From: Hemerocallis citrina
Taxonomy: Eukaryota; Streptophyta; Magnoliopsida; Asparagales; Asphodelaceae
DNA: 64,000 nucleotides
Assembly: GCA_017893485.1 (NCBI GenBank)
Contig: CM030363.1
Span: 85,949,730-86,013,729, forward strand
Direction: 5' to 3'
Part shown: positions 7,314 through 15,596 of the stretch, in pieces
Layout of the letters: each line of letters opens with the position of its first letter
Numbering within the stretch: the first letter of the stretch is position 1
The notes under the pieces: model-generated
Told to the model about the DNA's origin: nothing
Seen by the model: only the letters and a program-made list of their open reading frames with translations
The model's database searches: none
Translations under genes and position numbers: made by a program

Positions 7314-7353
7314 ATCCTACCCACCTTCCAAAAAAATTTCGTCATCGAAATTT
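7314..7353 (-). promoter_or_regulatory. PPT and pre-PPT hairpin, LOG element unit 1
   Basis: On the minus strand the order is hairpin then purine-rich GGAAGGTGGGTAGGATTG then LTR. The hairpin arms are 7334-7341 and 7346-7353 (AAATTTCG / CGAAATTT) with a 4-base loop. It is the equivalent of the hairpin before the PPT in the chromovirus copies. Confidence 0.75.
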
Positions 7354-7493
7354 ACTTAGGCGGGATATAGGATAGCTAAGAATGCAATACTCTTCAACTG
7401 AGAGTACAACGGAAGATTAAAGAAACAAAGTGTACAAAGGCACGAAAACAATTAAAGACAAATTGTGTACCCTCAACTGAAGGACTCAACAGT

Positions 7494-8219
7494 TTAATGT
7501 CTAGGCTCAGAATCTGAACCACCGACATCGCTAACATCCCAGTTCAGCTGAGTCACAATCTCATCTCGCTCTGGCACATACTCCTCCAATTTTCTTAGTA
7601 ACACCTTAGGCGATGGAGCTGAAATCAAGATGTGTCTGGCCTTAGTAGATATAAACTCCTCAGCCATAGCTGAGTCTATGAAGGACAGAAGTGAGTCGTA
7701 ATATCCATCAACGTTTAAAAGACCCACCGGTTTGCTGTGGATCCCCAGTTGAGCCCAAGTGATCACCTCGAACAGTTCCTCAAGTGTTCCATAACCTCCG
7801 GACAAGGCTATGAAAGCATCAGCAGCACGAGCCATTTCACCCTTCCTCTCGTGCATGTTAGAGACAATTCTAACATCTCTCACAGTTTCCCCAGTAATCT
7901 CTTTCAGCATCAGCGAATTGGGAATCACTCCCAAAATGTGTCGGCCACCAGTACGAACGACGTCAGAAACTAGGCCCATCAATCCTATGCTCCCACCACC
8001 GTAGACGAGATCGGTATTCCTATCTACAAGCTCCTTGCCGAGCTCGTTCGCGGCTTCTTGGTAGCTAGCTCTTTTGCCAGAACTACTGCCACAAAATACA
8101 CAAATCCTACCATATCTCGATGAAGATGAAGAAAGCTTCATATTCTTCCCTACTTCACTTTCTTCTTCCACCGATTTTCTTTTCATCCCCGCTACCGATT
8201 CTTGATCTCTTCTTTCCAT
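7494..8219 (-). CDS. LOG: LOG-like cytokinin riboside 5'-monophosphate phosphoribohydrolase, unit 1 (intronless)
   Basis: A 241-aa ORF, close to the family's usual 210-240 aa. It shows the LOG fold landmarks in order: RICVFCGSSSGKR (38-50), LVYGGGSIGLMG (71-82), RHILGVIP (93-100), NMHERKGEM (121-129, conserved Arg125), GGYGTLEE (141-148, conserved Glu148) and VGLLNVDGYYDSLLSFID (165-182). LOG enzymes release active cytokinin bases from riboside monophosphates in the cytosol. The family motif PGGxGTxxE reads SGGYGTLEE here (Pro140 to Ser, codon 7800-7802). I chose Met at 8219 because unit 2 starts at the equivalent Met. The frame is open 41 codons further upstream (to 8342), but that part is translated purine-rich tract. 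Plant LOG genes normally have several introns; their absence says this was captured from a spliced transcript. It lies in the retroelement's sense orientation in place of pol. Activity is uncertain. Confidence 0.85.
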   Translation of the reverse strand: MERRDQESVAGMKRKSVEEESEVGKNMKLSSSSSRYGRICVFCGSSSGKRASYQEAANELGKELVDRNTDLVYGGGSIGLMGLVSDVVRTGGRHILGVIPNSLMLKEITGETVRDVRIVSNMHERKGEMARAADAFIALSGGYGTLEELFEVITWAQLGIHSKPVGLLNVDGYYDSLLSFIDSAMAEEFISTKARHILISAPSPKVLLRKLEEYVPERDEIVTQLNWDVSDVGGSDSEPRH

Positions 8220-8224
8220 TTGCC

Positions 8225-8515
8225 AAGAAAATCCGAGCTCCTCTCTCTCTTTCTTTCTTGCTCCCGCATCTGCTACCGGCTTCTCACTCTCTCTCTTCTC
8301 CGAAGCTTGCTCCCGAGTTGTCTTCTTATTTCTCTTCTTCACTTTCTTCCCCGGCTTCTCTCTCTTTCTTTCTTCTCCGACTTCTCTCTCTTTCTTCTTC
8401 CTCTTTCTTTCTCTTTTTCTTTCTTTCTTTTTTCTTTCTTTCTTCTTTCTTTGACTTCTCTCCTCATTTTTCTTCTTTTTATTTCTTCTTCTTTTTGTCT
8501 TTTCTTCATTAATTC
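8225..8515 (-). repeat. Purine-rich (GA/GAA) tract upstream of LOG unit 1
   Basis: About 290 bp are almost pure C/T on the plus strand, so the element's transcript is GA-rich here, just upstream of the LOG ORF. It may be the 5' UTR of the captured LOG mRNA. Long frames through it encode only Ser/Phe/Leu or Lys/Glu/Arg runs and are not genes. The equivalent tract in unit 2 spans about 13870-14150. Confidence 0.7.
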
Positions 8516-8539
8516 ACCGCCCCCTACAACCGGCCTATG

Positions 8540-8641
8540 ATCAGTATGTGCACTTCGGCCCCTATCCATTCCAAATATAACATCGAACCTTGAGTTACTG
8601 ATGACGATGAAGTTTTCTTTGAAATTTATTCCACGAATCAA
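8540..8641 (-). pseudogene. Retroviral-type aspartic protease end, unit 1 (fragment)
   Basis: A short minus-strand stretch reads GINFKENFIVIS...FDVIFGMD, the pattern seen near the C-terminus of Ty3/gypsy aspartic proteases (hydrophobic strand followed by (F/Y)DVILGMDWL). The expected WL after GMD is missing, and the frame then runs into the purine-rich tract. I infer this marks the point where pol was cut and joined to LOG sequence. The same scrap is at about 14170-14272 in unit 2. Confidence 0.55.
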
Positions 8642-9291
8642 TAAAGGACTCTGCTACGCTTTTGCTACGCCACTCTGATGGTGATGCTTCTGGCTGCTAA
8701 TATCAAGTGATAGCGATAGACGAATTGAGCAGAATTAAGAGATTAGTAACACGAAGATGTTGTTTTTCAAAATTATTTGGTAAAGTGGGCCCCACCCACC
8801 AAACAATGTTAAAAAATTGTGACAAGATTGGTGCCGCAAAGAAAAATGGGAGAAACAGGAATGAAGAATTTGTCAGTTACTCATTTCTCGTTCCTATAAA
8901 TGAGAGATTTAGGAAGAAGAAAAAAAAATAAAAAAGACAAGAACAAGAAACAAGCAGAAAAGAAGAAAAAGAAAAGAGTGTATATTTGTAAGGTGTAGTA
9001 ATACCAGTTTTAGAAAATAGTGAAGAGTCTTCTTGTTCTTATTTCAATTTCCAATTTGTTTGCCATTTAGACCAACAAAATTCCTACTCTCTACCAACAG
9101 AAGATTCAAGAAAATAGGGATAGAAAGAAATAACTAGTATGATACTCAATAATGAATTGATCGATGAGAATGAATGCAATGTACAGAAGGTAACAAACGA
9201 CGCAGGAACTGAAGCAAGACTAGATCGAAATATACCAGTAACTGTTTCTTAGGTGATCTCTGCCTCCTCTGTAATCAGGTTATGAGCCTGA
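8642..9291. other. Unassigned spacer between protease scrap and gag, unit 1
   Basis: No supported gene. On the plus strand there is a promoter-like pair: TGGGCC-containing AAAGTGGGCCCCACC near 8773-8787 and CTATAAAT near 8893, followed by an A-rich run (8910-8960). Unit 2 has the same at 14281-14923. It could be captured promoter sequence or degraded element sequence. Confidence 0.4.
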
Positions 9292-13861: not shown

Positions 13862-13869
13862 TTGCCAAG

Positions 13870-14272
13870 AAAATCCGAGCTCCTCTTTCTTGCTCCCGCC
13901 TCTGCTATCGGCTTCTCATTCTCTCTCTTCTCCGAATCTTTCTCCCGAGTTGTTTTCTTCTTTTTCTTCTTCCCTTTAATTGCCCGGCTTCTCTCTCTTT
14001 CTTTCTTCTCCGACTTCTCTCTCTTTCTTCTTCCTCTTTCTTTCTCTTTTTCTTTCTTTTTTTTTCTTTCTTCTTTCTTTGACTTCTCTCCTCATTTCTC
14101 TTCTTTTCATTTCTTCTTCTTTTTGTTTTTTCTTTTCTTCATTAATTCATCGTCCCCTATAACCGGCCTATGATCAGTATGTGCACTTCGGCCCCTATCC
14201 ATTCCAAATATAACATCGAACCTTGAGTTGTTGATGACGATGAAATTTGCTTTGAAATTCATTCCACGAATC
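13870..14272 (-). pseudogene. Purine-rich tract and protease scrap, unit 2
   Basis: 13870-14150 is C/T-rich on the plus strand (GA-rich on the element's sense strand). About 14170-14272 on the minus strand reads GMNFKANFIVINN...FDVIFGMD, again the end of a Ty3-type aspartic protease. The junction to the purine tract is in the same place as in unit 1, so the fusion predates the duplication. Confidence 0.55.
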
Positions 14273-14280
14273 AATAAAGG

Positions 14281-14923
14281 ATCTGCTACGCTTTCGCTAC
14301 GCCAATCTGATGGTGATGCTTCTGGCTGCTAATATCAAGTGATAGCGATAAACGAATTGAGCATAATTAAGAGATTAGGAACACGAAGATGTTGTTTTTC
14401 AAACTTATTTGGTAAAGTGGGCCCCACCCACCAAAAAATGTTGAAAATTGTGACAAGATTGGTGCCGCAAAGAAAAATGGGAGAAACAGGAATGAAAAAT
14501 TTGTCAGTTACTCATTTCTCGTTCCTATAAATGAGAGATTTAGGAAGAAGAAAAAAAAATTAAGCAAGACAAGAACAAGAAACAAGCAGAAAAGAAGAGA
14601 AAGAATAGAGTGTATATTTGTAAGGTGTAGTAATACCAGTTTTAAAAAATTGTGAAGAGTCTTCTTATTCTTATTCCAATTTCCAATTTCTTTGCCATTT
14701 AGACCAACAAAATTCCTACTCTCTACCAACAGAAGATTTAAGAAAATAGGGATAGAAAGAAATAACTAGTATGATACTCAATAATGGATTGATCGATGAG
14801 AATGAATGCAATGTACAGAAGGTAACAAACGACGCAGGAACTGAAGCAAGACTAGATCGAAATATACCAGTAACTGTTTCTTAGGTGATCTCTGCCTCCT
14901 CTGTAATCAGGTTATGAGCCTGA
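14281..14923. other. Unassigned spacer, unit 2
   Basis: Counterpart of 8642-9291, colinear with a few indels. No supported gene. Confidence 0.4.
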
Positions 14924-15463
14924 TTACACTCTCCAGTCTGTCCTCCACTGAGATTTGATCCTCTTATTGGTGTGACACATCTTCCTCTTCGAGCAATCCC
15001 GAATCTTGTGATCATTCGCTCCGCATACAAGACACAGGTTGTTGGCCTTCCAGCAGTTCTTGCATATGTGTCCAACTCGGCGGCAATAATAGCACTTCTG
15101 GTCCTTCTTCGGAGTCGCCGATGAGTAAGGTGATGGTCTAGTAGTCGGGGTCTGAACTGACCTCTGTATCAGTCCACCTGTAGACCGTGTGACAGTAAGG
15201 AGATGTAATGCCTCCTGAACGGCATTCCACCCTCTATGGATCTGCTCCTGGGTATCGAGCATGGCGGTGTAACTCTTATGCTGGTGTACAAACAAGTCCC
15301 ACTGAGTAGAGTTTGCGGCATCTTGTACCCTATCCAGATTAGCTTTCACCAGTTCATTTTGCTCTTGCTGTAGCTCCATCATTCGTTGCATCTCCTGGAG
15401 AATGGCAACGATCTCCGATATTTCATCCCTGGGTGTAGAAGTCGAAGAGCCTTCGTAAACCAT
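14924..15463 (-). pseudogene. gag: gag-like protein with two CCHC knuckles, unit 2 (early stop)
   Basis: Same protein as the unit 1 gag, ending at the same residue. The equivalent of the upstream start is followed after a few codons by a stop (a Gln codon in unit 1 is TAA here, near 15510), so the open frame starts at an internal Met (179 aa). Both knuckles are intact, apart from Ser replacing Trp after the second one. Confidence 0.75.
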
Positions 15464-15573
15464 AGTCTGAAATGCATATTCGAATGGGGTAAATCTCCAG
15501 ATGGCAAGTTAGTTATTAACATTCATGTGATCCACGTGGTGTGTATATTGTTGAGCTTAGCATGGTTCAAACC

Positions 15574-15587
15574 TGGCTCTGATACCA
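15574..15587 (-). promoter_or_regulatory. Primer binding site, tRNA-iMet type, unit 2
   Basis: Minus strand TGGTATCAGAGCCA, nine bases from the end of LTR 3 at 15597, identical to unit 1. Confidence 0.92.
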
Positions 15588-15596
15588 CTAAAAACC

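What the first reader, a model, noticed from the sequence alone, without database searches (positions are those of the whole stretch)
7314..15596. Retroelement that replaced pol with a captured LOG cytokinin-enzyme gene
Seen: between an iMet primer site with gag and a polypurine tract with LTR, where pol should be, lies a LOG-like ORF in sense orientation, twice. A protease scrap ends abruptly next to it. Known: LOG enzymes make active cytokinin, and plant retroelements occasionally transduce host genes. Inference: an LTR element packaged and integrated LOG mRNA sequence, giving a mobile, LTR-driven copy of a hormone-activating gene. I know of no described LOG-carrying LTR element.
Basis: partly seen in the sequence, partly recalled or inferred. 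Interest (0 to 1): 0.92.

Follow-up and report, generated by a model that had tools for sequence, protein, structure and literature searches.

The report
Jumping gene carrying a cytokinin-activating enzyme
In a large plant genome (probably daylily), a retrotransposon that lacks the usual copying genes carries a plant gene for an enzyme family that activates the growth hormone cytokinin, has spread it to hundreds of places, and shows signs that evolution kept that gene working while the element multiplied.

Summary
In detail: an LTR–internal–LTR–internal–LTR array on the minus strand (5192–18609), each internal region holding an initiator-Met primer site, a broken gag piece, a LOG gene in sense and a polypurine tract, with no room for pol. 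The genome (3.78 Gb; fits Hemerocallis citrina) has 646 matches to a LOG 30-mer. All 20 copies fetched with flanks have family LTR sequence on both sides; 17 of 18 with mapped LTR ends have perfect 5-bp target duplications and 0.07–0.84% LTR divergence. In 16 of these 20, one shared deletion removed gag. LOG evolves near-neutrally after insertion (N/S ≈0.9) but is strongly constrained in variants shared by many copies (≈0.1); LTRs show no such trend, gag in six copies looks unconstrained, and 14 copies found without LOG agree. One pol-bearing chromovirus with the same 3' end was seen, the likely source of enzymes. LOG-family domains were already reported in Citrus and Populus Ty3/gypsy elements, so 'none described' is wrong; a pol-less, high-copy LOG family with selection on its cargo was not found in my literature searches. 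What LOG does for the element is inferred; expression and enzyme activity are untested.

The parts
5192..7313 (-). LTR_A, 3' LTR of unit 1, cut short on its far side by another Ty3/gypsy LTR ending at 5191
   Evidence: self-BLAST, K2P 0.047-0.057 to LTR_C and LTR_B
7314..7329 (-). polypurine tract of unit 1
   Evidence: sequence adjoining the LTR start; same position in fetched copies
7494..8219 (-). LOG gene of unit 1 (241 codons from the family's ATG; table-11 frame runs to 8342); conserved Arg and Glu kept, PGG changed to SGG
   Evidence: PF03641 9e-43; translation
8340..8510 (-). GA-rich stretch upstream of LOG
   Evidence: sequence
8558..8587 (-). FDVIFGMD, protease-like motif (recalled)
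   Evidence: translation; no Pfam match
9292..9903 (-). gag remnant of unit 1
   Evidence: ORF; homologous piece of L023 has zinc knuckles PF00098
9944..9955 (-). primer binding site, initiator-Met type (recalled)
   Evidence: exact motif
9965..12955 (-). LTR_B, shared by the two units
12956..12971 (-). polypurine tract of unit 2
13136..13861 (-). LOG gene of unit 2 (241 aa); open frame but conserved Arg->Met and Glu->Lys
   Evidence: PF03641 2e-41; translation
14924..15463 (-). gag remnant of unit 2 (an in-frame stop lies further upstream)
15576..15587 (-). primer binding site of unit 2
   Evidence: exact motif
15597..18609 (-). LTR_C, 5' LTR of unit 2; outer border at 18609

Best explanation
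A non-autonomous Ty3/gypsy (chromovirus-derived) LTR retrotransposon carries an uninterrupted LOG gene of host lineage in place of pol. It kept LTRs, primer site and polypurine tract, and is most likely copied in trans by a pol-bearing chromovirus with the same 3' end. It has spread LOG to hundreds of loci up to very recently. Shown here: the anatomy, the copy number, target duplications, the youth of the copies measured, and purifying selection on LOG in replicating lineages with near-neutral change after insertion. Inferred: capture through mRNA, trans-mobilisation, translation from the LTR transcript, cytokinin-activating activity, and that LOG raises the element's own transmission, for example by favouring division of the meristem or germ-line cells in which it is active.
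For: Own-genome search: 150 of 1,267 first-look candidates scored; apart from the query copy all are 86-90% over nearly the whole 241 aa. A LOG 30-mer (<=2 mismatches) has 646 matches, control 0. 20 of 20 copies fetched with flanks lie between family LTR sequence. 17 of 18 with LTR ends mapped have 5-bp target duplications and LTR K2P 0.0007-0.0084. Among 18 copies K2P is 0.073 in the LTR, 0.0745 at LOG third positions, 0.019 at positions 1+2. Site-corrected N/S over 110 LOGs falls 0.88, 0.61, 0.53, 0.35, 0.11 from singletons to variants in >=11 copies (last bin against singletons p=1.9e-12); LTR pseudo-codons range 0.49-1.08 without trend; transitions and transversions apart agree. Fourteen copies outside the LOG lists (10 found by gag, 4 by leader; partly read): singletons S15 N38, shared S17 N4, p=5.7e-5. 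In 6 gag-bearing copies gag pN/pS is 0.68, LOG 0.32. 10 of 10 gag-found copies read carry LOG. One LOG-less element with the same tract and LTR start ends in integrase SH3 plus chromodomain.
Against: No listed database protein exceeds 76% identity to the unit-2 LOG (120 of 7,822 hits shown), so expression is unsupported. Most LOGs counted came from a list ranked by protein similarity, which favours conserved copies; 15 of the 17 leader-found full LOGs are also in that list, so only the 14 partly read copies are free of it. L011 has no target duplication and LTR K2P 0.119; its first LTR is preceded by a tract, so it too sits in an array. Near-neutral singletons mean the host does not keep individual copies for their function. 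The partner rests on one 361-base stretch. The parental intron-bearing gene was not found.
Confidence: 0.85

Rival explanations
1. Source-locus model: a few LTR-LOG loci serve the plant as ordinary LOG genes, and their transcripts are retrotransposed. Selection then acts on host genes at those loci; the element gains nothing from LOG.
For: Shared variants constrained and singletons near-neutral is also what a few conserved source loci would give; unconstrained gag fits too.
Against: Constraint spans diverged lineages: mean pairwise dS 0.15 over 42 copies, LTR K2P 0.03-0.12 between 18 copies and two N-terminal subtypes, so several long-lived source loci would be needed.
Confidence: 0.3
2. Passenger model: LOG was captured by chance and spreads as neutral cargo; conservation reflects youth and choice of copies.
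For: Gene capture by plant LTR elements is common (PMC13317346, passages; PMC7264820, passages). Private changes are near neutral, and the LOG sample is mostly ranked by protein similarity.
Against: dN/dS 0.15 and 0.24 at dS 0.11 and 0.17; frequency trend absent in the LTR; gag in six of the same copies near the LTR value; the trend holds in 14 copies outside the ranked lists. Stops in 100 of 150 best gag hits against 15 of 150 best LOG hits (hand counts), though the gag list may hold older copies.
Confidence: 0.08
3. LOG acts inside the replication cycle, for instance on nucleotide pools or RNA packaging, not through cytokinin.
For: Selection is tied to replication; LOG acts on nucleoside monophosphates (recalled).
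Against: I know of no role of LOG in retrotransposition (recalled, not searched); the kept residues do not distinguish.
Confidence: 0.1
4. LOG inserted independently into an existing element, or the array is an assembly artefact.
For: The window array alone could suggest it.
Against: LOG lies inside the element in 20 of 20 fetched copies on 10 contigs, with target duplications around 17 whole elements.
Confidence: 0.01

Closest known systems
YgdH (LOG-family) domain in Ty3/gypsy elements of Citrus and Populus (PMC9289625, section 12 read; Steinbauerova et al. 2011 not held, not read)
   Same: LOG-family domain inside plant Ty3/gypsy LTR elements
   Different: Those consensuses were collected with reverse transcriptase as marker, so they come with pol; here pol is gone, the host is probably a monocot, and selection on LOG is measured. 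Whether the captures are related was not tested.
AlkB-carrying Ty3/gypsy elements of Phalaenopsis (PMC9289625, abstract and section 12 read)
   Same: host-type enzyme domain fixed in an LTR retrotransposon lineage
   Different: 25-kbp elements with an RNA demethylase shown active in vitro; here about 7.5 kb, pol-less, hormone enzyme, activity untested
Maize Bs1 (PMC13317346, passages read)
   Same: LTR element that transduced host gene sequence
   Different: Bs1 holds segments of three genes, none full-length as transduced; here one complete ORF in hundreds of copies
[quoted passage not shown]
   Same: captured genes with reported signs of selection and expression
   Different: Many different genes surveyed there; here one high-copy family, with the change from constraint to neutrality seen by variant frequency
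TR-GAG, LARD and TRIM non-autonomous LTR elements (recalled)
   Same: pol-less, presumed mobilised in trans; the gag-bearing subgroup resembles TR-GAG
   Different: those carry gag or no coding capacity; this one mostly lost gag and kept a host enzyme gene
Acute transforming retroviruses (recalled, analogy only)
   Same: replication genes replaced by a growth-related host gene, helper needed
   Different: plant retrotransposon; growth effect not shown

Membership tests
LTR retrotransposon | paired LTRs with TG...CA ends around an internal region | tested here: met
LTR retrotransposon | primer binding site after the 5' LTR and polypurine tract before the 3' LTR | tested here: met
   (iMet assignment recalled)
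LTR retrotransposon | short target duplication at each insertion | tested here: met
   17 of 18 copies, 5 bp; not in L011; not testable for the window array, whose left end is cut
Ty3/gypsy chromovirus (autonomous) | own gag-protease-RT-RNaseH-integrase | tested here: not met
   three-frame reading of both window internals and of six fetched ones shows no frame long enough for RT or integrase
Non-autonomous derivative of a chromovirus | shares terminal sequences with a pol-bearing element | tested here: met
   one LOG-less locus with the same tract and LTR start encodes the end of integrase (SH3 and chromodomain, E 4e-5 and 3e-4, below the Pfam cutoffs; 47% identical to the window's chromovirus)
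Non-autonomous derivative of a chromovirus | mobilised in trans by that element | not testable with these tools
   none
LOG cytokinin riboside 5'-monophosphate phosphoribohydrolase | full-length PF03641/TIGR00730 match and match to solved plant LOG-family proteins | tested here: met
   2a33 over residues 31-237 and 1ydh over 33-234 (copy L010)
LOG cytokinin riboside 5'-monophosphate phosphoribohydrolase | conserved Arg and Glu and PGGxGT motif (roles recalled) | tested here: met
   Arg 100 of 102, Glu 99 of 102, PGGYGT 88 of 102; not met in window unit 2
LOG cytokinin riboside 5'-monophosphate phosphoribohydrolase | NCBIfam equivalog model NF058542 | tested here: not met
   126 bits against a cutoff of 300; no known plant LOG was run as a comparison
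LOG cytokinin riboside 5'-monophosphate phosphoribohydrolase | releases free cytokinin from its nucleotide | not testable with these tools
   none
Gene transduction through mRNA | captured gene intronless where the parent has introns | tested here: inconclusive
   LOG reads uninterrupted; the parent gene was not found

The most novel reading that the evidence does not exclude
A selfish plant retrotransposon uses a captured cytokinin-activating enzyme to promote proliferation of the very cells (shoot meristem or germ-line precursors) in which it is transcribed, so new insertions are over-transmitted. LOG is its only working protein, a growth-hormone counterpart of transforming retroviruses, and selection acts on the hormone enzyme for the element's benefit.
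Probability: 0.3. Interest if true: 0.96.

Novelty: new variant of a known kind. Interest (0 to 1): 0.85.

Why it matters
Gene capture by LTR elements is known, and some captured genes are reported to be under selection. Here one complete hormone-enzyme gene is carried by a young, high-copy element that has no pol and has mostly lost gag, and codon evidence says the gene was selected while the element multiplied and not afterwards. That makes testable whether a mobile element can profit from host hormone control, and warns that apparent LOG gene-family expansions in such genomes can be transposon cargo.

Tried and rejected
Parental gene: an Asparagus LOG core, a 41-residue piece and a 52-residue C-terminal piece were searched in the genome. 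In each, 150 of 821-1,180 candidates were scored and no intron-bearing gene was identified; known copies recur through these lists, but I did not sort every hit. The top hit, fetched as L130, is an intronless, broken LOG copy.

Splicing as cause of gag loss: the deletion borders are the same in 16 of 20 fetched copies and by eye do not fit GT-AG, so one founder deletion is preferred.

gag homologues in the protein database: 44 candidates, none significant. The gag remnant aligns only weakly with the other gag in the window.

Artefact checks on selection: LTR pseudo-codons, gag, transitions and transversions apart. The leader-found set (17 full LOGs: 0.63, 0.28, 0.10) proved a weak control because 15 of 17 are also in the list; one search replaced it.

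Never answered: a count of primer-site junctions and a search for the partner's pol end.
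Full report
What was checked. The window holds an array on the minus strand: LTR_A 5192-7313, internal 1 7314-9964, LTR_B 9965-12955, internal 2 12956-15596, LTR_C 15597-18609. Read in element direction, each internal region has an initiator-Met type primer site, a gag remnant, a short protease-like motif, a GA-rich stretch, a LOG ORF in sense, and a polypurine tract. The gag piece of copy L023 has zinc knuckles and no capsid match. No frame is long enough for RT or integrase. LOG hits PF03641 at 9e-43 and 2e-41, and copy L010 aligns over its core with solved Arabidopsis proteins of the family. 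LTR-LTR and internal-internal distances in the window are all 0.047-0.057, which fits an array formed soon after insertion and decaying since; between the two window LOGs dN is 0.050 and dS 0.057. Unit 2 has lost the conserved Arg and Glu; unit 1 has SGG for PGG.

It is a family. The window lies in G000:C6:85949730-86013729, a 3.775-Gb genome. Contigs C1-C11 are 217-472 Mb, and every other contig whose length I saw is 4.2 Mb or less. Hemerocallis citrina is reported at 3.77 Gb and 11 pseudochromosomes (PMC8027641, abstract and passages seen); the identification is inference. A LOG search gave 1,267 first-look candidates, of which 150 were scored; apart from the query copy all are 86-90% identical over nearly the whole query. 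A LOG 30-mer allowing two mismatches has 646 matches and none for the reversed control. Of 20 copies fetched with flanks, 20 have family LTR sequence on both sides, with the 5' LTR truncated in L025 and internally deleted in L011. In 18 both LTR ends could be mapped: 17 have perfect 5-bp target duplications and LTR K2P 0.0007-0.0084, roughly 0.03-0.32 My at 1.3e-8 per site per year (rate recalled). L011 has no duplication and K2P 0.119; its first LTR is preceded by a polypurine tract, so it is itself part of an array. L015 and L025 were not measured.

LOG is the constant part. The same 763-column deletion removes most of gag in 16 of these 20 copies; L011, L015, L023, L026 and both window units keep it. 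In the gag-less copies read frame by frame (L009, L010) LOG, in a 248-codon frame, is the longest open frame; the next are 118-132 codons in and around the GA-rich stretch. Ten gag-found copies, chosen because they were outside the LOG lists, all carry LOG where expected. Of 40 hits to the leader, LOG was verified by coordinates or sequence in 27; the other 13 were not examined.

Selection. Among 18 copies (the 20 without L011 and L015) mean K2P is 0.073 for the LTR, 0.075 for 300 nt upstream of LOG, 0.058 for the 3' tail, 0.032 for the leader, 0.0745 for LOG third positions and 0.019 for first and second positions. dN/dS is 0.149 for these and 0.239 for the 20 taken from the bottom of the 150-hit list. 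Over 110 LOGs, site-corrected N/S falls with the number of copies sharing a variant: 0.88 (singletons), 0.61, 0.53, 0.35, 0.11 (in 11 or more; S 48, N 18; p=1.9e-12 against singletons). The LTR read as pseudo-codons gives 0.49-1.08 with no trend; transitions and transversions taken apart agree. In six gag-bearing copies gag pN/pS is 0.68 and LOG 0.32; between the two young ones (L026, L023) gag dN is 0.059 and dS 0.083, LOG 0.012 and 0.086. Stops occur in 100 of the 150 best gag hits and 15 of the 150 best LOG hits; both are hand counts, each list is ranked by its own score, and the gag list may hold older copies. So LOG drifts after insertion but was kept functional in the lineages that replicated.

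Limits and an independent check. The LOG list was ranked by protein similarity, which can exclude decayed clades. Of the 17 full LOGs found through the leader (0.63, 0.28, 0.10; p=1.6e-5), 15 are also in that list, so they are a weak control. therefore used only 14 partly read copies outside the lists (10 found by gag, 4 by leader). Within them singletons are S15 N38 and shared variants S17 N4 (p=5.7e-5). Three of the 14 have a 1- or 2-base indel and one has a stop in the part read. Alleles they share with six or more of the 110 are S113 N29, alleles not seen in the 110 S9 N22. Of 102 LOGs, 11 have a stop, Arg is kept in 100, Glu in 99, and 76 have every checked motif and no stop.

Origin and partner. 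In a 52-row protein tree the retro-LOGs form one clade (SH-aLRT 100) inside a group with two Asparagus proteins, one Iris protein and one unnamed contig protein (95), on a long stem. The LOG core is 84-88% identical to an Asparagus LOG in the 150 hits scored. The parental gene was not found. A broken, intronless LOG copy (L130, 79% identical, no LTR or other internal match in the 701 bases read) suggests that LOG mRNA was retrocopied at least once more. The junction of polypurine tract and LTR start, as a 27-mer with two mismatches allowed, has 6,691 matches and no control match, about ten times the LOG count, though the two patterns differ in length and stringency. One such locus without LOG, read for 361 bases, encodes the end of integrase with SH3 and chromodomain, 47% identical to the other chromovirus in the window. 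It is the candidate helper; only one was read.

How it most likely works. The element supplies cis signals (LTRs, primer site, tract); a chromovirus supplies enzymes; LOG is carried and, when expressed, would raise active cytokinin. Selection on LOG while the element replicates means either that LOG helps the copies encoding it to be transmitted, or that a few conserved source loci feed the family. The first would be new biology: hormone control as a transmission strategy. Expression, enzyme activity and mobility are not shown. Of 7,822 database hits the 120 listed reach at most 76% identity to the unit-2 LOG.

Known work. PMC9289625 (abstract, section 12 and passages read) reports a LOG-family (YgdH) domain in Ty3/gypsy consensuses of two Citrus species and, with a looser filter, Populus trichocarpa, so LOG in LTR elements is not unprecedented. 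Reviews report selection and expression of genes captured by LTR elements in rice and sorghum (PMC13317346 and PMC7264820, passages read). My searches on LOG or its synonyms with LTR retrotransposons (listings seen) showed no pol-less LOG family. Most subscription papers are not held, and Steinbauerova et al. 2011 could not be read.

Noticed in passing
G000:C10:31369143/31373950/31378757; C2:88676352/88681152; C10:236176958/236182406/236186206; C7:86997454/87001908: Other closely spaced LOG copies (3.8-5.4 kb apart) suggest that tandem LTR-internal arrays like the window's recur in this family.
   Followed up: no
L130 (G000:C547:152560-153260): Intronless, broken LOG copy 79% identical to the element's LOG, with no match to LTR or other internal sequence in the 701 bases read: probably a separate processed pseudogene.
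   Followed up: partly
window 35979-48019: Chromovirus sequences (gag 40050-41096, pol 41127-43754, chromodomain in 43573-44478) between blocks 35979-39351 and 44582-48019 that are 99.3-99.5% identical, probably a young insertion.
   Followed up: no
window 1-5191: A related gypsy element (pieces 92-95% identical to the 36-48 kb one, one block 82%) whose LTR ends at 5191 and cuts LTR_A.
   Followed up: no
window 6152-6644, 11434-11926, 17126-17618: Each family LTR contains an internal repeat with 193-base spacing.
   Followed up: no
window 24328-26772, 54767-57190, 61214-62825: Another repeated element, 80-83% identical, in both orientations; not identified.
   Followed up: no
L111, L112, L116: A second LOG subtype with a different N-terminal linker; its indels there are multiples of three.
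   Followed up: partly
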